From: a virus
DNA length: 21,096 nt
Strand: one strand, 5' to 3'
IMG/VR virus record: IMGVR_UViG_3300046535_001760
Location: 1-21,096 of that record
A program made the position numbers and the translations under genes. The notes under the pieces are model-generated. The model made no database searches and was not told where the DNA came from. It was given only the letters and a program-made list of their open reading frames with translations. This document shows, piece after piece, positions 1 through 16,706 of this stretch (within the stretch, counting starts at the first letter, position 1; each line of letters opens with the position of its first letter).

Positions 1-357
1 TATCCGCTATCGGTGGATGCCCACGTGTTCAGCCTTGCCGAGATTCGGCCGCTGATCGCATCTACCCATTTCCACTCGCCCAACTCCCTTGAGGCGGGGT
101 TGCAGAACTACGTCCACATGTTCCTGCCGCGATATGGTCTGTGCTACCGGGCGGCGAAGGTGGTCAACGTCCCGTGGACGCGGGTGCAGGTAGACTGCGA
201 CAACAGGTACGACCACCACCACACCGCCGACGACCTGCTGCGCTACTGGGAGATGGGGCAGCGGATTGACCTGCAAGACTTGGATGGGTGCTTCCCCAAC
301 AGCGTTCACCAGGAGTTCACGTTGATGCTCGAGCCGAGGGATGGGGCAGCCAAGTGA
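1..357 (+). CDS. C-terminal part of a glycosyltransferase-like protein (5' end outside window)
   Basis: The frame is open from base 1 to the TGA at 355-357, so the true start lies upstream; a GTG at 13 is in frame but probably internal. The 118 visible residues contain a PNSLEAGL segment, a VNVPWTRVQ segment, a histidine cluster followed by TADDLL, and a late HQE. From memory, this order (PN-LE, N-P-NRVQ, H-AE-L, HQE) is typical of the C-terminal half of a glycosyltransferase-like family found near polysaccharide genes and in phages. The nucleotide-sugar binding half is missing, so no donor or acceptor can be inferred. The next gene starts within its stop codon region (GTGA, 4-base overlap), which indicates translational coupling. 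No membrane segment is visible. The family call is moderate; the reading frame is secure because the downstream gene is coupled to it. Confidence 0.6.
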   Translation, partial: YPLSVDAHVFSLAEIRPLIASTHFHSPNSLEAGLQNYVHMFLPRYGLCYRAAKVVNVPWTRVQVDCDNRYDHHHTADDLLRYWEMGQRIDLQDLDGCFPNSVHQEFTLMLEPRDGAAK

Positions 358-1142
358 GCCGCAACGTCTACATCACCTTCAGCGGCGCCCCGTATGAGGC
401 AACCACCGCTGAAATAGTCAAGCGGGGGCCATCGATGGGGGCCGATGCGGTGTGGGTATATGACGACCGCTGGTTGATTCACACCGAGTTCTATCGCCTC
501 AACCGCAAGTTCTGGGACCACCCACACAAACGGGGGTTCGGGTGGTACATCTGGAAACCCTACATCATCATGCACGCCCTCAGCCGCCTCGACCCGGGCG
601 ACTGCGTGCTATACACCGATGCCGACACCTACCCGCTGGCTTATTTCGGCAACCTGTTCCACATTTGCAGGCGCGACGGTGGCATCATGTTGTTTGCCTC
701 TGAGAACCACTGGCAACACCAGTGGTGCAAACGCGACTGCTTCATCACCATGGGGATGGACAGCCAACCGGTTGCCGGTCATCTTGCTCAGGCTGGAGTG
801 GCACGGTTCATGGTGTTTGAGAAGGGGCCATGGGCCGCTGATCAGTTCCTGATGGAGTGGCTCACCTATTGCGTCAACTCCCGGGCCAACACCTTCGACC
901 CGTCCCAGTACGGTGAGGAGCGTCCTGGGTTCATCGAGCACCGGGCTGAGCAGGCGATCATGACCAACCTCGCCTACAAATACGGCCTCAGGCTGTACCG
1001 CGAGGCGTGCGGGGCGGGCGAGAGCATTGACCGCGACCGTCACCTATACCCTCAGCTGTTCGTGCAGGTGGACGTCCCGGGCGAGAAGGTGAGCACCGAA
1101 CCGTTGGGCAGTTCATTCGCTGATGTTCCATACCCATGTTGA
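354..1142 (+). CDS. Glycosyltransferase-like protein with DXD motif
   Basis: A 262-residue protein starting at GTG 354, which overlaps the upstream stop by four bases. An upstream in-frame ATG at 288 would read through the coding part of the previous gene and is rejected. The segment GFGWYIWKPYII (residues 61-72) followed by GDCVLYTDADTY (82-93) matches the pattern G-(F/Y)-W-WKP ... YxDAD of GT-A type sugar transferases from capsule and O-antigen clusters. D89 and D91 would hold the divalent metal and the nucleotide sugar. No signal peptide or transmembrane helix is visible, so the enzyme should be cytosolic. It is the second of four overlapping sugar-transferase genes leading into the terminase. 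Donor and acceptor are unknown. The fold is likely; the biochemical role is inference. Confidence 0.72.
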   Translation: MSRNVYITFSGAPYEATTAEIVKRGPSMGADAVWVYDDRWLIHTEFYRLNRKFWDHPHKRGFGWYIWKPYIIMHALSRLDPGDCVLYTDADTYPLAYFGNLFHICRRDGGIMLFASENHWQHQWCKRDCFITMGMDSQPVAGHLAQAGVARFMVFEKGPWAADQFLMEWLTYCVNSRANTFDPSQYGEERPGFIEHRAEQAIMTNLAYKYGLRLYREACGAGESIDRDRHLYPQLFVQVDVPGEKVSTEPLGSSFADVPYPC

Positions 1143-1720
1143 CCACCGCCACTCTCATACCGGCGTTCGTCATCTATTGCCCGCACCTGAACCGCGACAT
1201 CAGGGGCATCCTGAAGCATGTTCACCACCCCCGCATATTCACCGGGTTTCCGACCCAGCGGGGTGAGGACGGGTGCCTGGAGTCGCATAAGGCGATCATC
1301 CGGTGGGCAAGGGACAACGACCACCCGGCGGTTTGGGTGATCGAGGACGACTGCGAGTTCACCCCCCGGTTCAATGCCGCTCAGTGGCAGGCTGACGGGG
1401 TGTGGGCGCAAGCCAATGGGTTTGGAGCGATGACCGGCGGGGTGGTCAGGACTTGGGGGGCGAAGCTAGCCCGCATCGGGCTGGTGTCGGTCGATAGCTT
1501 CTGTAGCGCCCACTGCATGCTTTACCTTGCCGCCAACGACGGCTACACCCGCGCACTGGCTGCCGTCCAGCCCTATGACCAGACTCTCGGGCCTGCGCTG
1601 GTGCAGTTCCCGTTCGTTGCCGTTCAGGCCCCCAGCTTCAGCGGTATCCTGAAGCGCGACGTCAACTATGTCCCCGACTACTGGGCCTGGGAAGACGAAT
1701 TGAGGAGTCAACTGCAATGA
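1136..1720 (+). CDS. GT25-like glycosyltransferase
   Basis: A 194-residue protein starting at ATG 1136, seven bases inside the previous gene. It shows the two hallmarks of the GT25 (LPS biosynthesis) family in the right order and spacing: GCLESH at residues 46-51 and VIEDDCEF at 68-75, where E70-D71-D72 is the metal-binding acidic motif. GT25 enzymes move hexoses from nucleotide sugars to lipooligosaccharide or, in eukaryotes, to hydroxylysine of collagen. This one is near the short end for the family and has no membrane segment. It overlaps the next gene by four bases (ATGA). Whether its acceptor is a glycan or a protein cannot be read from the sequence. Confidence 0.75.
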   Translation: MLTTATLIPAFVIYCPHLNRDIRGILKHVHHPRIFTGFPTQRGEDGCLESHKAIIRWARDNDHPAVWVIEDDCEFTPRFNAAQWQADGVWAQANGFGAMTGGVVRTWGAKLARIGLVSVDSFCSAHCMLYLAANDGYTRALAAVQPYDQTLGPALVQFPFVAVQAPSFSGILKRDVNYVPDYWAWEDELRSQLQ

Positions 1721-2286
1721 ACGTCGTCACCGTCATCATTCCAACCATCGGGCGGCTGAGCCTGGACCGCACGCTGGACTCGGTTATGTGTCAACTGAGG
1801 CCGGACGACAGGGTGATGGTGGTCGGTGACGGGTACCAACCCCTTTCCCGCGACCAGTGCAACAAGCGGGGTCCGCAGGTGGCATACGGCGAAATCAACC
1901 CACCTGCCCACAACTGGGGGCACAACCAGCGCAACTGGGCGATGCGTCAGGCGTCAGGCACCCACATCGCGTTCCTGGACGACGACGACATATGGGTCCC
2001 CGGGGCGAGGGAGGCGTTGGAGGTGGCGGCGCCCATCCCGACCATCTACCGCATGCGTATCCCGAACAATGGCATGCTGTGGCGGCGCCCGCATCTGCAG
2101 GAAGGCAACGTCGGCACCCCGATGATCGTGGTACCCAACGTGCCCGAGCGCTTCGGGGTGTGGGGCGACAGATACGAGGGCGACTTCGACTTCATCAGTT
2201 CAACGGTTGCGGCATGGGGCGGTAATGTAGAGTGGCGCGAAGAGTTCCTGTGCCATGTGCGGCCTGACCTGGACGTCCACGCCTGA
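1717..2286 (+). CDS. GT2 family glycosyltransferase
   Basis: A 189-residue protein with the classic N-terminal GT2 pattern: VTVIIPTIGR at residues 4-13, a TLDSV helix (19-23), DRVMVVGDG (31-39), and then GTHIAFLDDDDIW at 81-93, where the D88-D91 run is the metal and nucleotide-sugar site. RNWAMRQASG (72-81) matches the GT2 segment before the acidic motif. The protein consists of the catalytic domain only; the membrane-anchoring C-terminal helices of polyprenol-phosphate GT2 enzymes are absent, so a soluble enzyme is expected. The start at ATG 1717 overlaps the upstream stop (ATGA), and its own TGA at 2284-2286 overlaps the ATG of the terminase by one base. Translation of the sugar enzymes and of the packaging motor is therefore coupled. 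Confidence 0.85.
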   Translation: MNVVTVIIPTIGRLSLDRTLDSVMCQLRPDDRVMVVGDGYQPLSRDQCNKRGPQVAYGEINPPAHNWGHNQRNWAMRQASGTHIAFLDDDDIWVPGAREALEVAAPIPTIYRMRIPNNGMLWRRPHLQEGNVGTPMIVVPNVPERFGVWGDRYEGDFDFISSTVAAWGGNVEWREEFLCHVRPDLDVHA

Positions 2287-4103
2287 TGGCCAAGACCGTC
2301 GCCGCCGCCCGCATACACGACCCGATAGCCGAGGACGTTGCCTTCGACGCGCTCATCCGTGCCCTCAACCACAACCCCAGGGAGGTCATCCGGCCGCTGC
2401 CCGACATAGCCAAGGTGGAGGATGAGGCGGAGGAGATGGCGCTGTCGTTGCGCAAGTTCATTCCCGGGGCGTGGCCAGCGGTCGAGCCCGCGATATTCAT
2501 CCCCAACTGGCATATCGACGCTATTGCCGAGCACCTTGAGGCGGTGTCGGCCGGTGACATCCTCGACCTGCTGATTACGATGCCGCCCCGGCACTCGAAG
2601 TCGTTGCTGGTATCGGTGCTGTGGCCCGTGTGGGAGTGGCTGCAGCTGCCATCATACCGCTGGGTGTTTGCGTCCTATTCCTTCACCCTGAGCTTGCGTG
2701 ACAGCGTGAAGCGCCGTACTCTGCTGCGCTCGCCTTGGTTCATGGAGCGATGGGCGGACCGGTTCACCCTGCTCAAGGAGCAGAATACCAAGATCAGGTA
2801 CGAGAACGACCACCATGGGTTCATGCTGGCCTCGTCGGTTGGGGGGTCCAACACCGGGGAGGGCGGAGAGCGCATCATCGCGGACGACCCGCACAACATC
2901 AAGAAGATTGAGAGCGAGGACGTCCGCATCGACACCGTGAACTGGTGGAATATCGTGATGTCCACCCGGCGCAATACCCTGACATCTGCTAGGGTGGTAG
3001 TTCAGCAGCGGGTGCACGAGGCCGACGTCGCGGGCGACATCATGGAGAAGGGCGGGTACGTCCACCTCAACCTGCCTACCGAGTTCGGGTTCGGCGGCGG
3101 TCAGCGGTGCAAGACAGGGTGGACGGTTGCGGCAACAGGGCTCGAGCATCACTGGGAGGACCCGAGGCAGGAGGTTGGTGAGCTTCTCAACCCCAAGAGG
3201 TTCGATACCGTCGCCAACGACAAGGCCAAGATAACCCTAGGCGACTACCAGTATGCTGCCCAGCACGGCCAGAACCCGACGCCGCCCAGCGGTAGTATCA
3301 TCCAACGGGCGTGGCTGCGCTTCTACGGCGGCCCGACCCCGATACCGGTGCCCGACTGGCTTCGTGCTACCAACCCGATGACCCCGCTGCTGTCCCTAGA
3401 CTGCACGTTCAAGGACAAGAAGGACACCGACTACGTGGCGGGCCTCGGGTGGGCACAGTTCGGGTCCGACATCTACCTGATGCCTCAGTGCATTCATGAC
3501 CGGCTGAGCTTCACCGGCACCATCGACGCCCTTGCCGAGATGACGGGCGGCAAGTCATTGGATGGCACAAAGAAATTCGACGGCATCTACCCCTTCCTGC
3601 GCATAAAGCTGGTTGAGGACAAGGCGAACGGCAGCGCCGTCCTCGATACCATGCGGCACCAGATACCCGGGATGGTGGCGTACGAGCCCGGCAACAACAG
3701 CAAGGAAGCAAGGTTGCAGGCGGCCAGCTGGCGGTTCAGGGCAGGCAACATCTACCTTCCTCACCCGGTGATTGCCCCGTGGGTCAACGACTACATCTAC
3801 GAGCTTTGCGCATTCCCCAAGGCGCGGCGCGACGACTATGTTGACTCCACCTCGCAGGCGTTGCTCTGGATAGGCGGCGACCCGAACGAGGCGGAGGGTG
3901 CCCCTGCCGGGGTCGAACAGGAGTCAACCTGGATGGTGGAGGGGCTGGGGATGTCGGTCGGGGCGTCGGGCGGCGATGTCCCCCAACACCTGGGTAGGTC
4001 GGCGGCGGATGACGGCGACCCGGCGGCCATCGGCGGCGACGTCAGCAAGTGGAAAATAGGGGATGACAGCGGCAACAGGCGGCGTTCAAGGTGGAGGATG
4101 TAA
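2286..4103 (+). CDS. terL: Terminase large subunit (packaging ATPase and nuclease)
   Basis: A 605-residue motor protein that cuts concatemeric phage DNA and pumps it into the prohead through the portal. The N-terminal ATPase has a Walker A-like loop PPRHSKS at residues 100-106, a Walker B strand RIIADDPH at 196-203 (D200, D201), and the coupling segment VVVQQRVHEADVAGDIM starting near 237. The C-terminal RNase H-type nuclease is recognisable from D372 in LSLDCTFKD, E444-D445 in LVEDKANG, and D517-D518 in RRDDYVDSTSQAL, which together would bind two metals. Length is normal to slightly long; the last 75 or so residues are Gly/Ala/Asp rich and probably disordered. The start ATG shares its A with the stop of the preceding GT2 gene. 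No small terminase lies immediately beside it. Confidence 0.95.
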   Translation: MAKTVAAARIHDPIAEDVAFDALIRALNHNPREVIRPLPDIAKVEDEAEEMALSLRKFIPGAWPAVEPAIFIPNWHIDAIAEHLEAVSAGDILDLLITMPPRHSKSLLVSVLWPVWEWLQLPSYRWVFASYSFTLSLRDSVKRRTLLRSPWFMERWADRFTLLKEQNTKIRYENDHHGFMLASSVGGSNTGEGGERIIADDPHNIKKIESEDVRIDTVNWWNIVMSTRRNTLTSARVVVQQRVHEADVAGDIMEKGGYVHLNLPTEFGFGGGQRCKTGWTVAATGLEHHWEDPRQEVGELLNPKRFDTVANDKAKITLGDYQYAAQHGQNPTPPSGSIIQRAWLRFYGGPTPIPVPDWLRATNPMTPLLSLDCTFKDKKDTDYVAGLGWAQFGSDIYLMPQCIHDRLSFTGTIDALAEMTGGKSLDGTKKFDGIYPFLRIKLVEDKANGSAVLDTMRHQIPGMVAYEPGNNSKEARLQAASWRFRAGNIYLPHPVIAPWVNDYIYELCAFPKARRDDYVDSTSQALLWIGGDPNEAEGAPAGVEQESTWMVEGLGMSVGASGGDVPQHLGRSAADDGDPAAIGGDVSKWKIGDDSGNRRRSRWRM

Positions 4104-4420
4104 TGGGCAGGAAGAAGGATAAGGTCAATAGGAAGAAGTCGCGGTGGGGGTACAGGCCATCGAAGAAGACGCTGCGCGATTACGTGCGCGAGGCGGCCCG
4201 CGATACAGCGGCCCGTGTGCCGCCGCCCATATCCAATAGGGAGCGACTGAACTCGTTCCTGTTGATGCTGGTGCGCGACGTCGTACCGTACGGCCGGGTG
4301 GAGGACATCATCAGCACCCTCGATACCCTGCTGCCCGCACATCGCGGTACTCATCGGTACGCCAACCCCCACTCCGACGCCTACATCCGTGACCTGTCCA
4401 ACAGACTGTGGAGGGATTGA
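4103..4420 (+). CDS. Small basic protein of unknown function
   Basis: A 105-residue protein. I chose ATG 4103, which overlaps the terminase stop (TAATG) and has GGTGGAGG about six bases upstream; an in-frame GTG at 4091 lies within that ribosome site and is less likely. The first 30 residues are very basic (MGRKKDKVNRKKSRWGYRPS), suggesting nucleic-acid contact or an electrostatic partner. The rest looks helical, with LNSFLLMLVRDVVPYGRVED as the best-structured segment. I recognise no family. The position between terminase and portal genes would suit a packaging accessory protein, but this is inference only. Confidence 0.7.
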   Translation: MGRKKDKVNRKKSRWGYRPSKKTLRDYVREAARDTAARVPPPISNRERLNSFLLMLVRDVVPYGRVEDIISTLDTLLPAHRGTHRYANPHSDAYIRDLSNRLWRD

Positions 4421-5628
4421 TGGATTCCGACTGCGAGATGGGCATGAGCGGCGCCCGACCGATGCGGATACTGTTCGTGTGGCCGGTGTGCCGGTTCAGT
4501 GTGTGGGACGTCGCACGCGGCTACAGGTCGGCCCTGACCCGGCTGGTTGGCGACACCAACATCAGCGACTACTTCCTCGACAAGCACTTCGCTTACCACC
4601 AGAAGGCTATTCCAGAGGATGCCCAGAACGAGATCGTTCTGTCGAAGATGGCGAGCGAGAACATCCTCAACGAAGCGCTGTACATGTTCGCGGACATCGT
4701 GATCGTCGTCGCGGGCCTCAACCTCCACCCGCTTGCCCTGTGGGGCCTGCGCCGCGCCGGTATCGCTGCCTGCACCATCCTCACCGAGTCGCCATACGAG
4801 GATGTCAACCAAGCCGACTGGGCGAGCGTCTATCCCGAAATGGTCATCGCGACCACCGAGCGTTCCTCGCTGAAGGCGTTTCCCAACTGGCACTACGTTC
4901 CGCACGCCTTCGACCCCGCCTACCATCAACCGGCCGCACGCAGTCCGGAGTACGCCTGCGACGTCCTCATGGTCGGCACCGGCTGGCCGGAACGTCAGCG
5001 TCTGCTGGAGAAGGTCGATTGGGCGGGCATCGACCTCAAGCTGTTCGGCATATGGGGCGGCATCACGCCATCCTCACCCCTCCACAAGTTCTACCCGGGT
5101 GGCACCTTGATCGACAACCGCCTCATCACCCAGCGGTATTGCTCCGCCAAGGTGTGCTTGAACATCCATAGGCCACACGCAACCGCCGAGAGTCTCGGGC
5201 CGCGAGCCTACGAACTGGCGGCGTGCGGAGCGTTCCAAATCTGCGACCGGCGACCGGAGGTCACCGAGGTGTTTGGTGACGCAGTACCGACCGTTGATGT
5301 CTCCTCCCGCGACGCCCACATCCACCTCGAACACCACATCCGCTGGGCACTGGAGCACCCCGACGAACGGTTGATGATGGCGCTGAGGGCAAAGGATAGG
5401 GTACAATCGCATACATTCGACAACAGAGCACGGCGGCTGCTGGAGGCAGTGGCCCCGGCGATCGGGTCGGCTGTCCCGCACCCGCAACAGTCGGACAGCA
5501 TCGACCCAGTGAGCCGGATGTTGACGGTACCGGCGGAGTTCAGGAAGATGGGAACTGACGACGGCATCGAGGAGTGGAATCTGGCGAAGATGGAAGAGGT
5601 CAAGGGCGGGGCAACGCAGCAGGCATGA
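4420..5628 (+). CDS. CgeB-like glycosyltransferase (GT-B type)
   Basis: A 402-residue protein. ATG 4420 overlaps the previous stop (TGATG) and has GGAGGG at 4410-4415; an in-frame GTG at 4408 sits in the ribosome site and is rejected. The N-terminal half begins with MRILFVWP, a Rossmann strand, and has ADIVIVVAGLNLHP and CTILTESPYED. The C-terminal half has DVLMVGTGWPERQRLLE and then ESLGPRAYELAACGAFQI (from residue 257) followed by PEVTEVFGD. This is the nucleotide-sugar binding signature of the spore-maturation CgeB / Glyco_trans_1_2 family of GT-B enzymes. No membrane segment is seen. The gene is placed between terminase and portal, which is unusual for a sugar enzyme. The acceptor is unknown. 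Confidence 0.8.
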   Translation: MDSDCEMGMSGARPMRILFVWPVCRFSVWDVARGYRSALTRLVGDTNISDYFLDKHFAYHQKAIPEDAQNEIVLSKMASENILNEALYMFADIVIVVAGLNLHPLALWGLRRAGIAACTILTESPYEDVNQADWASVYPEMVIATTERSSLKAFPNWHYVPHAFDPAYHQPAARSPEYACDVLMVGTGWPERQRLLEKVDWAGIDLKLFGIWGGITPSSPLHKFYPGGTLIDNRLITQRYCSAKVCLNIHRPHATAESLGPRAYELAACGAFQICDRRPEVTEVFGDAVPTVDVSSRDAHIHLEHHIRWALEHPDERLMMALRAKDRVQSHTFDNRARRLLEAVAPAIGSAVPHPQQSDSIDPVSRMLTVPAEFRKMGTDDGIEEWNLAKMEEVKGGATQQA

Positions 5629-5644
5629 GAAGGCAGTAACCACA

Positions 5645-7234
5645 ATGGCAAAGCGAACAGTATCCAAGGCCGCCTACGGTCCGCCGTCAACCGATGCCCT
5701 CGCCGGGCAGGCGGGGAGGGCTGAAGCGGGCGTCACGGGTCCGCCTTCACCCGACACCGGCCACGATGTCACCGCGTACGAAACGTATGGCATCAGCGGC
5801 CTTGCCCGCTACGGTGCCATCAGCCGCGTGTACGAGGAGTTCCTACGCGAACTCCAAGGCCCGCAAGGGATGAAGAACTACCGCGAGATGATGGACAACG
5901 ACCCGGTGGTCGGCGCCATCCTGTTCGCTGCCAACCACCTCTGCCGCAAGGTGTCATTCCGGTTCAAGCCTGCCAACGACACCCAGCAGGCCAAGTGGGT
6001 TGCGGCCAAGGTCGGGTCCATGATATTCGACGACATGGACTCCACTTGGCCCGAAACCCTCAGCGAGATCCTGACCATGTTGCCGTTCGGCTGGGCGCTG
6101 ATGGAGTGGAGGATAAAGCGGCGGCTGGGTATGTCGCCGCCCACCAACCCGGCACCCCCGCCGCTGGGGTCGGCTGGTATCGGTGGCATCGGCTACCCGG
6201 TGTCCACTTTCGCGCCGTCCCGGTTCGAGGATGGGCTCATCGGATTCCGCAGCTGGTCCCTGCGGTCCCAGGAAACGCTGTTCATGTGGGAGTTCGACAC
6301 CGACTCCAACGCCACCGTGATGCAGCAGATGGCGCCGCCGGACTACCGCGTTCGCCGCATCCCGATGACCAAGGCATTCCTGTTCCGCACCCAGGTTGCC
6401 AAGAACAACCCCGAGGGCCGGTCCATCATCCGCAACTGCTGGCCCAGCTACTACATCAAGAAGAACCTGCAGGTCATCGAGGGTATCGGGGTCGAGCGCG
6501 AACTCGCCGGTTACCCGGTTATCAAGATGGCCGAGCCCGACACCCAGCGCGGCCTGATGCCGCCCGACATCTGGAACCCGAAGAAGCCTGAGATGGTCGG
6601 GCTGCTGGCGGGCCTCAAGCAGATGGTACGGTCGGTGAGGATGGACGAGCAGATGGGGATGGTGCTGCCGTGGTGGGCAGACTTCAAGTTGGTGTCCACT
6701 GGGGGCAGGCGCAACTTCGACACCAACGGCATCATCGGCCGATACGACCAGCGGATCGCGATGTCGGTGATGGCCGACTTCATCATGCTGGGACACGAGG
6801 CGGTGGGGTCCAAGGCCCTGGCGTCCACGAAGATTTCGCTGTTCACTTCCGCCCTGTCCAGCTTCCTCGACAATGGCTGCGCGGTGGTCAACAGGCACGC
6901 GGTACCGACCCTGATGCAGTTCAATGGGTGGCCGCAGGAACTGGCCCCGGTGATGGAGCACGGGGATGTGGAGAGCGTCAACCTGCAGGAGTTGGGGGCG
7001 TTCATCAGGGATATCACCGGCAAGAACGTATCCGGCGCCTTCGACCCGCTGTCCCTGCCGGACGTTCAGGCCGCCTTGCTCCAGACCGCCAAGCTGCCGA
7101 CCGCTGGTATCAAGTCGTCCATCGGTGGGGTGGGAGACGCGAAGATGGGAGAGGGTGACTCCACGGGCGGCGGCGGGCCGGTTGCGGCACCCGAGGCGGC
7201 GATGGGGCCGCTGGCGGCGTTGAGCGCGACATAA
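5645..7234 (+). CDS. Portal protein (DUF935-like)
   Basis: A 529-residue protein that should form the dodecameric ring at one capsid vertex, through which DNA enters and leaves and to which terminase and neck proteins bind. The segment YREMMDNDPVVGAILFAANHLCRKV (about residues 79-103) is the conserved start of the portal core: a helix followed by DP-V and a run of hydrophobic residues. A WALMEWRIKRR segment follows near 150, and then RDITGKNVSGAFDPLSLPD towards the end, as in Mu gp29-like/DUF935 portals. The C-terminal 40 residues are Gly/Ala rich. The order terminase then portal then protease then capsid supports the call. The start is ATG 5645 with a modest GAGAAGGC ribosome site. Confidence 0.85.
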   Translation: MAKRTVSKAAYGPPSTDALAGQAGRAEAGVTGPPSPDTGHDVTAYETYGISGLARYGAISRVYEEFLRELQGPQGMKNYREMMDNDPVVGAILFAANHLCRKVSFRFKPANDTQQAKWVAAKVGSMIFDDMDSTWPETLSEILTMLPFGWALMEWRIKRRLGMSPPTNPAPPPLGSAGIGGIGYPVSTFAPSRFEDGLIGFRSWSLRSQETLFMWEFDTDSNATVMQQMAPPDYRVRRIPMTKAFLFRTQVAKNNPEGRSIIRNCWPSYYIKKNLQVIEGIGVERELAGYPVIKMAEPDTQRGLMPPDIWNPKKPEMVGLLAGLKQMVRSVRMDEQMGMVLPWWADFKLVSTGGRRNFDTNGIIGRYDQRIAMSVMADFIMLGHEAVGSKALASTKISLFTSALSSFLDNGCAVVNRHAVPTLMQFNGWPQELAPVMEHGDVESVNLQELGAFIRDITGKNVSGAFDPLSLPDVQAALLQTAKLPTAGIKSSIGGVGDAKMGEGDSTGGGGPVAAPEAAMGPLAALSAT

Positions 7235-7244
7235 GGAGGCTGGA

Positions 7245-7958
7245 ATGGCAGGCGGTATGATAGGCATGGCGTCGGGCGAGTCCCTTCGCTTCTCGCAGTT
7301 CGTTACATCCATCTACGGGCTCACGCGTCCGCCCAATACCGTGTTCATGCAGTCCATCGGGTTCTCGGTGGCGACCAACTGGAACATCATCGCACGCACG
7401 TTCCTCCGCCATCCTGACAAGCTCGACTGGCTGCTACTGGTGGAGGATGACCACCTCCTCCCCCAGGACACCATCATCCGGATGTTGGCGCACGACGTCG
7501 ATATCGTGTCGGCGCTGTACGTCCAGCGGGTGGCGCCGTTCGGGGCGTGCGTGTTCGACAGGGTAGAGGAGGGCACCGGCCGAGTGTTCAACCGCATCTT
7601 GCGCAAGGGCGACCGGGGGCTGGTCCCGGTGATGGCGGTTGGCGGCGGGTGCCTGCTCATCAAGCGGCGGGTGCTGGAGGTCATCGGTGACCCGTGGTGG
7701 GACTACGGCCATACGGCGTTCCCCGACGCCTGCAACCACGACATCAACTTCAGCAGGCGGGTGAGGGAGGCGGGTTTCCAAATCTGGTGTGACCTGGAAC
7801 TCGCCATCGAGCACATGGTCATCATGCCGGTCAAGCCGTTCCGCAAGGCTGACGGCACGTGGCGCACCAAGCTGTCAACCGGCGCAACGGGGATTGAGGT
7901 AGGAGCGGCATCGGATACCGAGCCGGGGGAAACTGACCCGGCGGAGGACCTGCTGTGA
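7245..7958 (+). CDS. GT-A type glycosyltransferase-like protein
   Basis: A 237-residue protein with a strong ribosome site (AAGGAGG at 7233-7239) and ATG 7245. DWLLLVEDDHLLP (residues 61-73) carries the E67-D68-D69 acidic motif in the place of the DXD of GT-A enzymes. VPVMAVGGGCLLIKRRVLE (128-145), NHDINFSRRVREAGFQIW (164-181) and the late IEH (188-190) match a GT2-related layout common in phage proteins: glycine strand, H-D-FSRR catalytic-region helix, and a final metal-binding His. The C-terminal 30 residues are acidic and probably flexible. The stop overlaps the next gene by four bases (GTGA). It is the sixth sugar-transferase-like gene of the window, this time directly after the portal gene. 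Confidence 0.75.
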   Translation: MAGGMIGMASGESLRFSQFVTSIYGLTRPPNTVFMQSIGFSVATNWNIIARTFLRHPDKLDWLLLVEDDHLLPQDTIIRMLAHDVDIVSALYVQRVAPFGACVFDRVEEGTGRVFNRILRKGDRGLVPVMAVGGGCLLIKRRVLEVIGDPWWDYGHTAFPDACNHDINFSRRVREAGFQIWCDLELAIEHMVIMPVKPFRKADGTWRTKLSTGATGIEVGAASDTEPGETDPAEDLL

Positions 7959-8321: not shown

Positions 8322-8558
8322 ATGGGAGCCAACGACAACAAGCAGCTGGCCGCCCAGCCCGCCATGGAGCGCCTGTTCACGATTCGCGAGATCGCGGCGG
8401 CGTTCCATGTCAGCGAGGAAACAATCCGCCTGTGGATCAAGCAGGGGGACATTCCGTACATCGAGGTAGGGCCGTCCAGGTTGAAGCGCCTACGGCCCCG
8501 GGACCTGCTCAGCAAGGACGCGGCGGACGGCATGCCGACCGCGAAACCGAAAGGATAG
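8322..8558 (+). CDS. Excisionase/MerR-type winged-helix DNA-binding protein
   Basis: A 78-residue protein. Residues 18-62 form a textbook HTH_17 domain: LFTIREIAAAFHVSEETIRLWIK, a turn at QGDIPYIEVG, the wing SRLKRLRP and a closing RDLL helix. Such domains occur in excisionases, MerR-type regulators and the DNA-binding domain of small terminases of the lambda gpNu1 type. No oligomerisation domain follows; the last 15 residues are Lys/Pro/Ala rich. The ribosome site AAAGGTGA lies close to the ATG. It resembles the product of 8849-9214, so two related DNA-binding proteins lie in one cluster. The position inside the head module argues against an excisionase and allows a role in packaging or late regulation. 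Confidence 0.82.
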   Translation: MGANDNKQLAAQPAMERLFTIREIAAAFHVSEETIRLWIKQGDIPYIEVGPSRLKRLRPRDLLSKDAADGMPTAKPKG

Positions 8559-8562
8559 TACC

Positions 8563-8871
8563 ATGGCATCGACCAAGGGCGGCAACCGGGGGCGGGTGCG
8601 GCGCAACACCGTCACCCGCAAAGTAGGCGTCGGCCGCAAGCGCAAGGATATCACCGCCAGCGGGACCGACAACGCCATCCGCAATGTCCTGCTGGATGAG
8701 AAGCACCGCCAGCAGAACGAGGTGCTGTCGATCCTGGACACCCTCCGCCGCACCCGCAAGTCCCGGGGCGGGGTAGGGGCGCCGCTGGACATGCCCCGGC
8801 ATCTGGCAAAGGAAGCGGACAACACCATCCTCGTCACGGACGCCCTCGATGTCGTTGTTAAAGCTGACTGA
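8563..8871 (+). CDS. Hypothetical basic protein, 102 residues
   Basis: The ATG at 8563 is preceded by AAAGGA. The N-terminal 30 residues are rich in Arg and Lys (MASTKGGNRGRVRRNTVTRK and onward), followed by a helical middle (AIRNVLLDEKHRQQNEVLSI) and a short C-terminal tail. I recognise no family. It lies between two winged-helix genes, overlaps the second by 23 bases, and could be a partner of either. No signal peptide or membrane segment is seen. Reality of the gene is supported by spacing (4 bases after the previous stop), ribosome site and intact frame. Confidence 0.65.
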   Translation: MASTKGGNRGRVRRNTVTRKVGVGRKRKDITASGTDNAIRNVLLDEKHRQQNEVLSILDTLRRTRKSRGGVGAPLDMPRHLAKEADNTILVTDALDVVVKAD

Positions 8872-9214
8872 CGGCGCCCTTCGCGGGTTCCGGTATCAGA
8901 CCCGGGCGATCAACGGCGTGCAGGCAATGCTCACTATTCACCAGACGGCGGCGGTCCTGGGCGTCAACCCCATGACCGTCCGCCGCTGGATACGCAAGCG
9001 CTGGTTGCCCGCCATCCGGTTGGGGCCTCAGACGGTGCGCATCAGGATTGCTGACGTCCGCGCCCTGCGCCGGGCGATGCAGGAATATCACAACGGCAAA
9101 CCGTTCCCACAGTCCGTCGATGACCGGCTGGGCACCATGGCCCGGTTCCTGTCCTCCGTGCCGCGCCTGAAGTCGCCCCGCCTCCGCTCGCCGTCTCCCC
9201 TGGACTACCTCTAA
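8849..9214 (+). CDS. Second winged-helix (excisionase/MerR-type) DNA-binding protein
   Basis: A 121-residue frame from ATG 8849. Residues 27-75 form an HTH_17 domain: MLTIHQTAAVLGVNPMTVRRW, IRKRWLPAIRLG, then TVRIRIADVRAL. It shares the spacing and many residues of the protein at 8322-8558 (TI, AA, V, T-R-WI, P-I, GP). The start is uncertain: ATG 8849 overlaps the previous gene by 23 bases and has no clear ribosome site, while ATG 8927 begins exactly at the domain but also lacks a good one. The C-terminal 40 residues are Arg/Ser/Pro rich (RLKSPRLRSPSP), likely flexible and DNA-contacting. Possible roles are late regulator or small-terminase-like DNA recognition protein. Confidence 0.75.
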   Translation: MSLLKLTDGALRGFRYQTRAINGVQAMLTIHQTAAVLGVNPMTVRRWIRKRWLPAIRLGPQTVRIRIADVRALRRAMQEYHNGKPFPQSVDDRLGTMARFLSSVPRLKSPRLRSPSPLDYL

Positions 9215-13005: not shown

Positions 13006-13245
13006 ATGGCAGAAGCAACCAAAGGCAATGGATGGAGCGCCTCGACGTTCTTTGTCGGGGACAAGGTGAACGGCAGCGCCGCGATCAGCACGTTCACCGG
13101 CACCATCAACACAGGCACGACCTTCGCCAACACCCCGAAGGCGAACCCCGGGTCGCTCCTGCTGGACCTGACCGGCAAGAAGCTGTACATCAATACCGGC
13201 ACCAAGGCCAGCCCGACCTGGACGGTTGTTGGGTCGCAGTCGTAG
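13006..13245 (+). CDS. Small beta-rich structural protein, 79 residues
   Basis: The ribosome site AAGGAG (12993-12998) precedes ATG 13006. The protein is Thr/Gly/Asn rich and probably all beta. Its end, LLLDLTGKKLYINTGTKASP followed by TWTVVGSQ, is a short motif often found in small fibre-like or decoration proteins of phages, where LYINTGT-ASPTWT closes a beta repeat. A head fibre or decoration component is the best guess. It is followed after 10 bases by the signal-peptide protein, which is also Thr rich. Confidence 0.7.
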   Translation: MAEATKGNGWSASTFFVGDKVNGSAAISTFTGTINTGTTFANTPKANPGSLLLDLTGKKLYINTGTKASPTWTVVGSQS

Positions 13246-13255
13246 GGGGCGACCG

Positions 13256-13681
13256 ATGAAAATCCGATTCGCGTCCATAGCGCTTCTCATCGCGTTGCTG
13301 GCGTCGGGGGTAGCCCGGGCTCAGTCGATCGACCTCGTTCGACCGCTCACGGCTACCGCAACCCTGACCACCGGCACCTGTTCCGGCACATCCATTTCCG
13401 CCACCGGCTGCATCGGCCTCAACCTCGCCGGTTACCAGCACGTGGCGGTGCAGATTACCGGGACCTGGACCGGCACCATCACGTTCGAAATCAGCTTGGA
13501 TGGCGGCACCACCTGGGTCACCCAGAACATGTTGCCGTCCACCGGCACCCAAACGGCGGTTACGACCACGACCGCAAACGGGGTGTGGTACTCCACTCAG
13601 CTGGTGGCGTCGCAATTCAGGGCGAGGTTCAGCACCGCCACAACGCCGCCTGTGGTGGTGTGGGTTCGAGCGTCGATGTAG
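13256..13681 (+). CDS. Exported Thr-rich beta protein with Sec signal peptide
   Basis: A 141-residue protein from ATG 13256, chosen because it gives a complete signal peptide; the longer in-frame start at 13226 overlaps the previous gene and adds an arginine-rich stretch. Residues 1-24 show n-region MKIRF, hydrophobic core ASIALLIALLASGV and an ARA|QS signal peptidase I site; there is no lipobox Cys. The mature part has a Cys pair (TGTCSGTSISATGCIG), then AVQITGTWTGTITFEISLDG (a beta-sandwich pattern) and a Thr-run (TAVTTTTANG). Such beta domains occur in virion decoration proteins, but a cleavable signal peptide is not expected in the head module. It may act in the periplasm or on the cell surface. 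The function is unknown. Confidence 0.78.
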   Translation: MKIRFASIALLIALLASGVARAQSIDLVRPLTATATLTTGTCSGTSISATGCIGLNLAGYQHVAVQITGTWTGTITFEISLDGGTTWVTQNMLPSTGTQTAVTTTTANGVWYSTQLVASQFRARFSTATTPPVVVWVRASM

Positions 13682-15469: not shown

Positions 15470-15877
15470 ATGTCGTCAAACGCCATCCACGGAAAGGGAG
15501 CAATCGTTTACGCCAGCCCGGGCACAGGAGCCGCGCAGCCCCTGGCCGAGCAGGTGGACTGGGCACTCGACTACGAGCAGCCGCTCGTGGAAGTCACCCC
15601 CCTGAACAACACCTGGAAGAACTTCGTGAAGGGGTTGGCGGGGTGGACGATGGCGTGCTCAGGGAACTTCGACCCCGTTGGCAACATCCTGTGGTCGGCA
15701 TCGATCGCCACCGGGAAGTCCAACATCTACCTCTATCCGTTGGGTGCCGCAGACATGACGCGGTACTACTACGGCACGGGTTGGATCGTTCTCGGGAAGA
15801 TCGCGGCCGGGTCCACGTCCGCGAAGGCCAGTTCGTCCTTCAAGGCCACGGGCGACGATGCGCTGAGCGTCAGGTAA
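15470..15877 (+). CDS. Major tail (tube) protein
   Basis: A 135-residue protein with ribosome site AAAGGGGG a few bases before ATG 15470. It begins with SSNAIHGKGAIVYASPGTGA, then EQVDWALDYEQPLVEVTPLN, FVKGLAGWTMACSGNFDP and a closing segment ADMTRYYYGTGWIVLGKIAA. The pattern 'G-GA-VY-s ... a-W-ldy ... v-v-plN ... f-GL-gWt-s--gnfD' is typical of small tail tube proteins, in which a beta-barrel polymerises into the non-contractile tube. Length is at the short end. The single tube gene without a sheath gene before it indicates a siphovirus-type tail. A strong hairpin lies 64 bases after its stop, in the next gene. Confidence 0.82.
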   Translation: MSSNAIHGKGAIVYASPGTGAAQPLAEQVDWALDYEQPLVEVTPLNNTWKNFVKGLAGWTMACSGNFDPVGNILWSASIATGKSNIYLYPLGAADMTRYYYGTGWIVLGKIAAGSTSAKASSSFKATGDDALSVR

Positions 15878-16215: not shown

Positions 16216-16608
16216 ATGAGTCGCAATGTGTTCGTGGTGCCGGAAACCGTCCGAATCAACCTATCAGATGACGAGTGGATCGAGGTCAAGAAGGAACTCA
16301 ACGTAGGCGAGGAGCGAAGGCACTTCAGTCTGGCGTCGGTATCGACCGTCATAGACGGTCGCGTCGTAGAACATACCGACTGGTCGATGTACGAAATCCT
16401 GCGAGCGCAGCTGTGGATGACCAAGTGGCACGTCCACGACGAGAACGGTGAGGTACCCCCGCTGTCGCTGGACGCCATCAAGGCGTTGACGGTGGATGTA
16501 TTCGAGGAGATCAATCAGGCGATCATCAGCCACGCCACGGAGCAGGCAGAAATAAAAAAAGCACGGACGAATCCGAGGGGAACCAGCGCTACACCGATAT
16601 CGCAGTAA
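16216..16608 (+). CDS. Tail assembly chaperone, zero-frame product (gpG-like)
   Basis: A 130-residue protein from ATG 16216 (ribosome site GGGGGGCAGG). The N-terminal part VVPETVRINLSDDEWIEVKK (about 7-26) has the 'I-L-D-EWI-VKKELN-GE-R' opening that I know from tail assembly chaperones of this kind. Its helical C-terminal part ends with EQAEIKK just before a slippery run of A. The zero-frame continuation (ARTNPRGTSATPISQ) is short and low in structure. Chaperones of this class bind the tape measure protein during tube assembly. It sits in the canonical place between tail tube and tape measure genes. Confidence 0.8.
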   Translation: MSRNVFVVPETVRINLSDDEWIEVKKELNVGEERRHFSLASVSTVIDGRVVEHTDWSMYEILRAQLWMTKWHVHDENGEVPPLSLDAIKALTVDVFEEINQAIISHATEQAEIKKARTNPRGTSATPISQ

Positions 16609-16706
16609 TGCGGTATATGGGGTGGAGTTGGGCGGATTTGATGAACGCTCCCCCGATGATAGTTCGGGACATAATCAAGCTGATAAACGAGGCGGCAGCG
16701 GAGTAA
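16216..16706 (+). CDS. Tail assembly chaperone, -1 frameshift product (gpGT-like)
   Basis: Ribosomes that slip back one base at 16554-16560 continue in the -1 frame, AGC ACG GAC and so on, until TAA at 16704-16706. This adds 48 residues after the first 115: STDESEGNQRYTDIAVMRYM, then GWSWADLMNAPPMIVRDIIK and a short acidic end LINEAAAE. The result is a 163-residue protein. The added part has the helix, W-W and acidic end typical of the T half of gpG-gpGT chaperones, and it exactly fills the gap before the tape measure gene, leaving 4 bases between them. The length of the extension is low but within the known range. Confidence 0.85.
16554..16560 (+). promoter_or_regulatory. Slippery heptamer A_AAA_AAA for -1 frameshifting
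   Basis: A run of seven A in the zero frame ATA AAA AAA GCA. Both lysine tRNAs can re-pair after a slip of one base. No strong downstream pseudoknot was found by eye. It lies 48 bases before the zero-frame stop, as is usual for chaperone genes. Confidence 0.82.

What the first reader, a model, noticed from the sequence alone, without database searches (positions are those of the whole stretch)
1..7958. Six soluble glycosyltransferase-like genes interleaved with terminase and portal genes
Four consecutive sugar-transferase-like genes (1-357, 354-1142, 1136-1720, 1717-2286) overlap and run into the terminase start, a CgeB-like one lies between terminase and portal, and a sixth follows the portal. 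The families differ (DXD GT-A, GT25-like, GT2, GT-B CgeB-like, GT2-related), which suggests assembly of a multi-sugar glycan and not a single transfer. None has a visible membrane segment, unlike the GtrA/GtrB type of phage serotype conversion. Established: some actinobacterial phages glycosylate capsid and tail proteins with phage enzymes encoded near structural genes. Inference: this phage makes and attaches a short glycan to virion proteins, with the Thr-rich proteins at 13006, 13256 and 18946 as candidate acceptors. No nucleotide-sugar synthesis or base-modification gene is visible in the window, so donors would come from the host or from genes elsewhere.
Basis: partly seen in the sequence, partly recalled or inferred. 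Interest (0 to 1): 0.75.

Follow-up and report, generated by a model that had tools for sequence, protein, structure and literature searches.

The report
Phage sugar-transferase cassette beside virion genes
An uncultivated phage carries at least six soluble sugar-transferase genes inside its virion-building operon, and relatives show that one of them normally sits right next to the gene for the tail tube, so these phages probably coat their own particles, most likely the tail tube, with a multi-sugar chain.

Summary
In detail: six glycosyltransferase (GT)-like genes lie in and around the terminase-portal region, overlapping or abutting those genes in one transcription direction. Two have strong family matches (GT2 at 1717, CgeB-like GT-B at 4420). 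One has a confident GT6-like GT-A model (354), one matches the STIV A197 GT (7245), one is a weak GT25 (1136), and the first is a truncated, weakly supported GT-A. Comparison changes the picture. The CgeB-like GT-B belongs to a phage family with at least 316 IMG/VR relatives. In 40 of 50 non-redundant members it lies directly upstream of the major tail protein gene; this window is an exception in which it apparently relocated. The four leading genes are a conserved cassette: the same four, in the same order, recur in other phages, in two of them together with a CgeB-like GT-B. In two further phages the GT2 and GT-B are fused. Other such islands add methyltransferases, an aminotransferase or GDP-sugar enzymes. 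Best explanation: a virion-glycosylation system building a multi-sugar glycan, with the tail tube protein as likeliest acceptor. Chemistry, acceptor and host are unproven. Phage virion glycosylation is already known in mycobacteriophages; the tail-tube-linked GT-B family and mobile cassette are the new variant.

The parts
1..357 (+). g1: C-terminal part of a probable GT-A glycosyltransferase (full-length relatives 256-264 aa), cut by the contig end
   Evidence: Cluster c49; full-length relatives in L147, L148, L150, L155; low-confidence model hits mostly GT-A enzymes. Weakest of the six.
354..1142 (+). g2: GT6-like GT-A glycosyltransferase with DAD motif (TDADTYP)
   Evidence: AlphaFold pLDDT 91.2, pTM 0.91; VIA-align Z about 14 over about 200 residues to BoGT6a and alpha-1,3-galactosyltransferases; Foldseek best hits GT enzymes; DXD aspartates invariant in 20 relatives
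1136..1720 (+). g3: GT25-like glycosyltransferase (RGEDGCLESH...EDD motif)
   Evidence: PF01755 6e-4, best member 6.5e-5, window protein below the curated cut-off; motif conserved in 5 relatives; weak PDB profile hits mostly GT25
1717..2286 (+). g4: GT2 glycosyltransferase
   Evidence: PF00535 1.4e-9 over cut-off; AvpGT GT2 4e-4
2286..4103 (+). terminase large subunit (context)
   Evidence: phrog_38 1e-74
4420..5628 (+). g7: CgeB-like GT-B glycosyltransferase of the tail-linked phage family
   Evidence: PF13524 5.5e-20 (scanned from 4408); 316 IMG/VR relatives; normally directly upstream of the major tail protein gene
5645..7234 (+). portal (context)
   Evidence: phrog_113 3e-49, PF06074 2e-18
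7245..7958 (+). g9: GT-A (GT2-like / STIV A197-like) glycosyltransferase; same place in relative G005/L016
   Evidence: phrog_12406 4e-9; A197 6e-8; L016 homologue 54% between portal and g10
15470..15877 (+). major tail protein: proposed acceptor, the usual neighbour of the GT-B gene
   Evidence: phrog_10528 1.4e-4; family member phrog_1407 major tail protein 8.9e-10; followed by probable tail assembly chaperone genes and the tape measure gene

Best explanation
The genes encode a virion-glycosylation system. Soluble GTs, made with the structural proteins, build a short multi-sugar glycan stepwise on a phage virion protein, using host nucleotide sugars. The likeliest acceptor is the major tail (tube) protein at 15470: the GT-B (g7) would act on or near it and the cassette g1-g4 (and g9) would start, extend or cap the chain. 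The glycan would shield the particle or tune adsorption. Shown: the GT families (two strongly, two by structure or remote homology, two weakly), the gene overlaps, the recurrent cassette, the GT2+GT-B fusions, and the GT-B/tail-gene adjacency in relatives. Inferred: the acceptor, order of transfer, sugars and biological role.
For: GT-B directly upstream of the major tail protein gene in 40 of 50 non-redundant genes, and one gene away in 2 more. In contigs chosen by capsid protein rather than by GT, 8 of 9 with a visible tail gene carry the GT-B: 5 of them next to it (two of these near-identical), 2 within six genes, and the window elsewhere. Cassette g1-g2-g3-g4 in the same order in L147 and L150, with one extra methyltransferase inside in L148, and g2-g3-g4 in L146; L147 and L150 also hold a CgeB-like GT-B. 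GT2+GT-B fusions in L090 and L099, in front of the tail gene. Sugar-tailoring genes in related islands: methyltransferases, DegT/DnrJ aminotransferase, GDP-mannose dehydratase and epimerase. g2 relatives in GT/methyltransferase islands between capsid and connector genes, the layout also seen in mycobacteriophage Klein. Precedent: mycobacteriophages glycosylate capsid and tail tube proteins with their own GTs (PMC12363180 and PMC12619734, citing Freeman et al. 2023).
Against: No biochemical data. In this window the GT-B is far from the tail gene, and in G010/G012 it is several genes away. GT-B distances also correlate with other neighbouring genes (c15 0.77, c5 0.61, against 0.65 for the tail protein), so adjacency may reflect a linkage block. 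The window's major tail protein has no Ser/Thr-rich tail. Two of the six GT assignments are weak. Thymidylate-synthase-family genes in two relatives leave DNA modification open.
Confidence: 0.62

Rival explanations
1. Virion glycosylation, but the main acceptor is not the tail tube: capsid, head decoration or tail-tip proteins are glycosylated and the GT-B/tail-gene adjacency is just a stable place for accessory genes.
For: The g1-g4 cassette sits next to head genes (before TerL here, before the head-tail adaptor in L147/L150, before a protease-like gene in L148); g9 sits after the portal; in the window and in G010/G012 the GT-B is away from the tail gene.
Against: The adjacency holds across distant members, while upstream neighbours vary.
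Confidence: 0.2
2. DNA hypermodification: the GTs glycosylate modified bases of the phage genome to evade restriction.
For: Known for other phage GTs (Pyle et al. 2024, cited in PMC12619734); thymidylate-synthase-family genes in relatives G001 and G008.
Against: None found in the window or in 60.8 kb of G016, which has the GT-B next to its tail gene. DNA-modifying GTs would not be expected to track the tail gene, and sugar methyltransferase and aminotransferase companions do not point to bases.
Confidence: 0.08
3. Host-surface modification (superinfection exclusion or serotype conversion) by soluble GTs acting on LPS or capsule precursors.
For: GT25 and GT2 enzymes are typical of LPS synthesis (general knowledge; PF01755 is described as an LPS biosynthesis family); no virion data exist.
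Against: Overlaps with late structural genes, no clear membrane segments, no tyrosine integrase found in the window or six relatives, and location tied to the tail gene.
Confidence: 0.1

Closest known systems
Virion glycosylation of mycobacteriophages Che8, Corndog and Myrna (Freeman et al. 2023, read only through citing papers PMC12363180, PMC12619734, PMC11256854)
   Same: Phage-encoded GTs; capsid and tail tube proteins reported as acceptors.
   Different: Actinobacterial hosts; in F1 phages the GTs lie near the genome's 3' end (PMC11256854). No tail-adjacent CgeB-like GT-B is described in the passages read; in the phage records searched, g7 has no match.
GT cluster of mycobacteriophage Klein (Omegavirus), gp15-gp22
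   Same: Several GTs plus a methyltransferase inside the structural operon between capsid and connector genes; gp15 is a distant relative of g9.
   Different: No match to g7; other GT families; function not shown in the record.
CgeB / PF13524 (Glyco_trans_1_2)
   Same: g7 matches over the whole Pfam domain.
   Different: A phage family; bacterial profile hits are much weaker (best 2.7e-29) and PHROGs has no match.
STIV A197 and PBCV-1 capsid glycosyltransferase (PDB 2c0n, 2p6w)
   Same: g9 is similar in sequence to A197; g2 has a GT-A fold that also matches 2p6w.
   Different: Other kinds of virus; fold or remote-homology resemblance only.

Membership tests
Glycosyltransferase set (six genes) | GT-A or GT-B fold with family signature | tested here: met
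   Met for 1717 and 4420 (Pfam over cut-off), 354 (fold) and 7245; 1136 is below cut-off with a conserved motif; the 1-357 fragment is only weakly supported.
GT6 (for gene 354) | Sequence membership in GT6 | tested here: not met
   No Pfam match to GT6 for the window protein or 19 relatives; only the fold matches. Hence 'GT6-like', not a member.
GT25 (for gene 1136) | Score above the PF01755 cut-off | tested here: not met
   20.2 bits against a cut-off of 24; GT25-like only.
Phage virion-glycosylation systems | GT genes in the phage genome alongside structural genes | tested here: met
Phage virion-glycosylation systems | Glycan found on a virion protein | not testable with these tools
   Needs MS of virions; the phage is uncultivated
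Gtr-type serotype conversion | Membrane-bound GtrA/GtrB/GtrX in a temperate phage | tested here: inconclusive
   No clear membrane segments in the GTs and no tyrosine integrase found in the window or six relatives, but the records are fragments and GtrA was not searched
DNA-hypermodifying GT systems | Base-modification enzymes such as thymidylate-synthase homologues in the genome | tested here: inconclusive
   Absent from the window and G016, present in G001 and G008

The most novel reading that the evidence does not exclude
A large family of uncultivated tailed phages glycosylates its tail tube: a dedicated CgeB-like GT-B, genetically paired with the major tail protein gene, works with an exchangeable multi-GT and methyltransferase cassette that moves between sites in the structural operon, giving each phage its own virion glycan.
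Probability: 0.45. Interest if true: 0.75.

Novelty: new variant of a known kind. Interest (0 to 1): 0.62.

Why it matters
It extends phage virion glycosylation from a few mycobacteriophages to a large uncultivated phage group. It names a specific enzyme-substrate pair to test (GT-B and major tail protein) and a recurring cassette whose members can be expressed and assayed, and it bears on why phages sugar-coat particles that need never meet an animal immune system.

Tried and rejected
The Thr-rich acceptor idea: the three proteins are Thr-rich, but 13256 has a conserved signal-peptide-like N-terminus. Mirror-tree as proof of GT-B/tail-protein specificity: GT-B distances track other neighbours too. 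Host identification: capsid relatives lie in genomes or bins of Alphaproteobacteria, Acidobacteria, an Actinomycetota MAG and methanogens at 40-51% identity, too distant to decide. GT-B in four of those genomes: none at 1e-5. Tail-linked GT-B in cellular genomes: only weaker matches in about 300 genomes each from the phylum of the Acidobacteria bin and the class of the Acetobacteraceae bin. Structure of full-length g1: low confidence. Paper searches for CgeB in phages or tail-tube glycosylation listed no paper whose title or abstract describes this arrangement, in an open-licence library only. A direct scan with g7 alone found no IMG/VR match; the alignment found 316.

Full report
The window is a 21,096-base IMG/VR virus record, linear and probably a fragment. 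It holds the structural module of a long-tailed phage: terminase, portal, capsid genes, connectors, major tail protein, a probable tail assembly chaperone gene with a small following ORF, tape measure and tail-tip genes.

Four GT-like genes run into the terminase gene with overlaps of 4, 7, 4 and 1 bases; a CgeB-like gene lies between terminase and portal; a sixth follows the portal. Strength of assignment varies: 1717 and 4420 pass curated Pfam cut-offs; 354 has no sequence family but a confident AlphaFold model matching GT6 enzymes at Z about 14; 7245 matches a PHROG glycosyltransferase family and STIV A197; 1136 is GT25-like below cut-off, with its GC-x-x-x-H and EDD motifs invariant in five sequences; 1-357 is a truncated gene whose full-length relative gives only a low-confidence model with GT-A matches.

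Relatives change the interpretation. Contigs found by capsid and terminase proteins share the module. In this capsid-chosen set 8 of 9 contigs with a visible major tail protein gene carry the CgeB-like GT-B: 5 immediately upstream of it (two near-identical contigs among them), 2 several genes upstream, and the window between terminase and portal; G013 has none. A wider search found 316 GT-B relatives in IMG/VR, of which 80 loci were fetched. After merging at 90% identity there are 50 GT-B groups: 40 directly upstream of the major tail protein gene, 2 one gene away, 2 at a contig end, 6 elsewhere. The tail gene family is identified by PHROG matches and by the genes that follow it. The window groups with G005 in GT-B, capsid and tail protein trees, with moderate to good support, and G005 has the usual order, so relocation in the window's lineage is the simplest reading.

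The four leading genes are also a unit. g1-g2-g3-g4 recur in that order in L147 and L150, with one methyltransferase gene inserted in L148, and L146 has g2-g3-g4. L147 and L150 carry a further CgeB-like GT-B (PF13524 2.7e-18 in L147), another GT2-type gene and methyltransferases in the same cassette, upstream of the head-tail adaptor gene. L090 and L099 encode a fusion of a g4-like GT2 and a g7-like GT-B just before the tail gene. Relatives of g2 occur in other islands with GT2-type and FkbM-methyltransferase genes between capsid and connector genes (L158-L162), and L163 adds GDP-mannose dehydratase and epimerase genes. Mycobacteriophage Klein has five annotated GTs and a methyltransferase in the same position.

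Best explanation: a virion-glycosylation system, with the major tail protein as the likeliest acceptor. The neighbour evidence is indirect. Protein-distance comparison does not single out the tail protein: correlation with GT-B is 0.65 for the tail protein, 0.61 for c5 and 0.77 for c15. Papers citing Freeman et al. 2023 state that mycobacteriophages glycosylate capsid and tail tube proteins with their own GTs (PMC12363180; PMC12619734); the original paper was not held.

Rivals: another virion acceptor, DNA modification, or host-surface modification. DNA modification cannot be dismissed because two relatives carry thymidylate-synthase-family genes, but G016 has the GT-B/tail pair without one in 60.8 kb. 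Host-surface modification is less likely given the overlap with structural genes and the lack of clear membrane segments.

Limits: the loci are metagenomic contigs; gene calls outside the window come from a simple codon-based caller; GT-B loci were sampled by GT-B similarity, so the 40 of 50 figure describes GT-B-bearing phages, not all phages; the host is unknown; the literature library is open-licence only.

Noticed in passing
window 13256-13681; homologues in G005, G015, G016: A Thr-rich protein in the structural module with a conserved N-terminal signal-peptide-like sequence and a conserved cysteine pair, so probably exported and not a cytoplasmic glycan acceptor.
   Followed up: partly
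L016 / G005 (IMGVR_UViG_3300046535_000201): 41% GC overall, yet its capsid protein is 85% identical to that of the window, whose GC is 62.6%, suggesting a shift between hosts of very different base composition.
   Followed up: no
window 8322-8558 and 8849-9214: Two small proteins that read like helix-turn-helix (excisionase/MerR-like) DNA-binding proteins between portal and protease genes, conserved in the relatives.
   Followed up: no
L058-L065: Capsid proteins of this family at 40-51% identity in bins of Acidobacteria, Acetobacteraceae, an Actinomycetota MAG and methanogenic archaea.
   Followed up: no
L163: A phage island with a GDP-mannose 4,6-dehydratase, a GDP-fucose-synthase-like epimerase and a probable fucosyltransferase (GLGNQLF motif, by eye) beside a g2 relative.
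   Followed up: partly
L119, L136: DegT/DnrJ-type sugar aminotransferase genes between a GT2 and the tail-linked GT-B, suggesting amino-sugar synthesis (Pfam for the L136 copy).
   Followed up: no
L147 429-1046, L152 1204-1830, L155 1492-2007: MptE-like (PF01973, below cut-off, scanned in L152) proteins near the islands; this family is related to flagellin glycosylation factors (my recollection).
   Followed up: no
window 16228-16608 and 16608-16706: A probable tail assembly chaperone gene followed by a small overlapping ORF before the tape measure gene, an arrangement that often marks a programmed frameshift.
   Followed up: no
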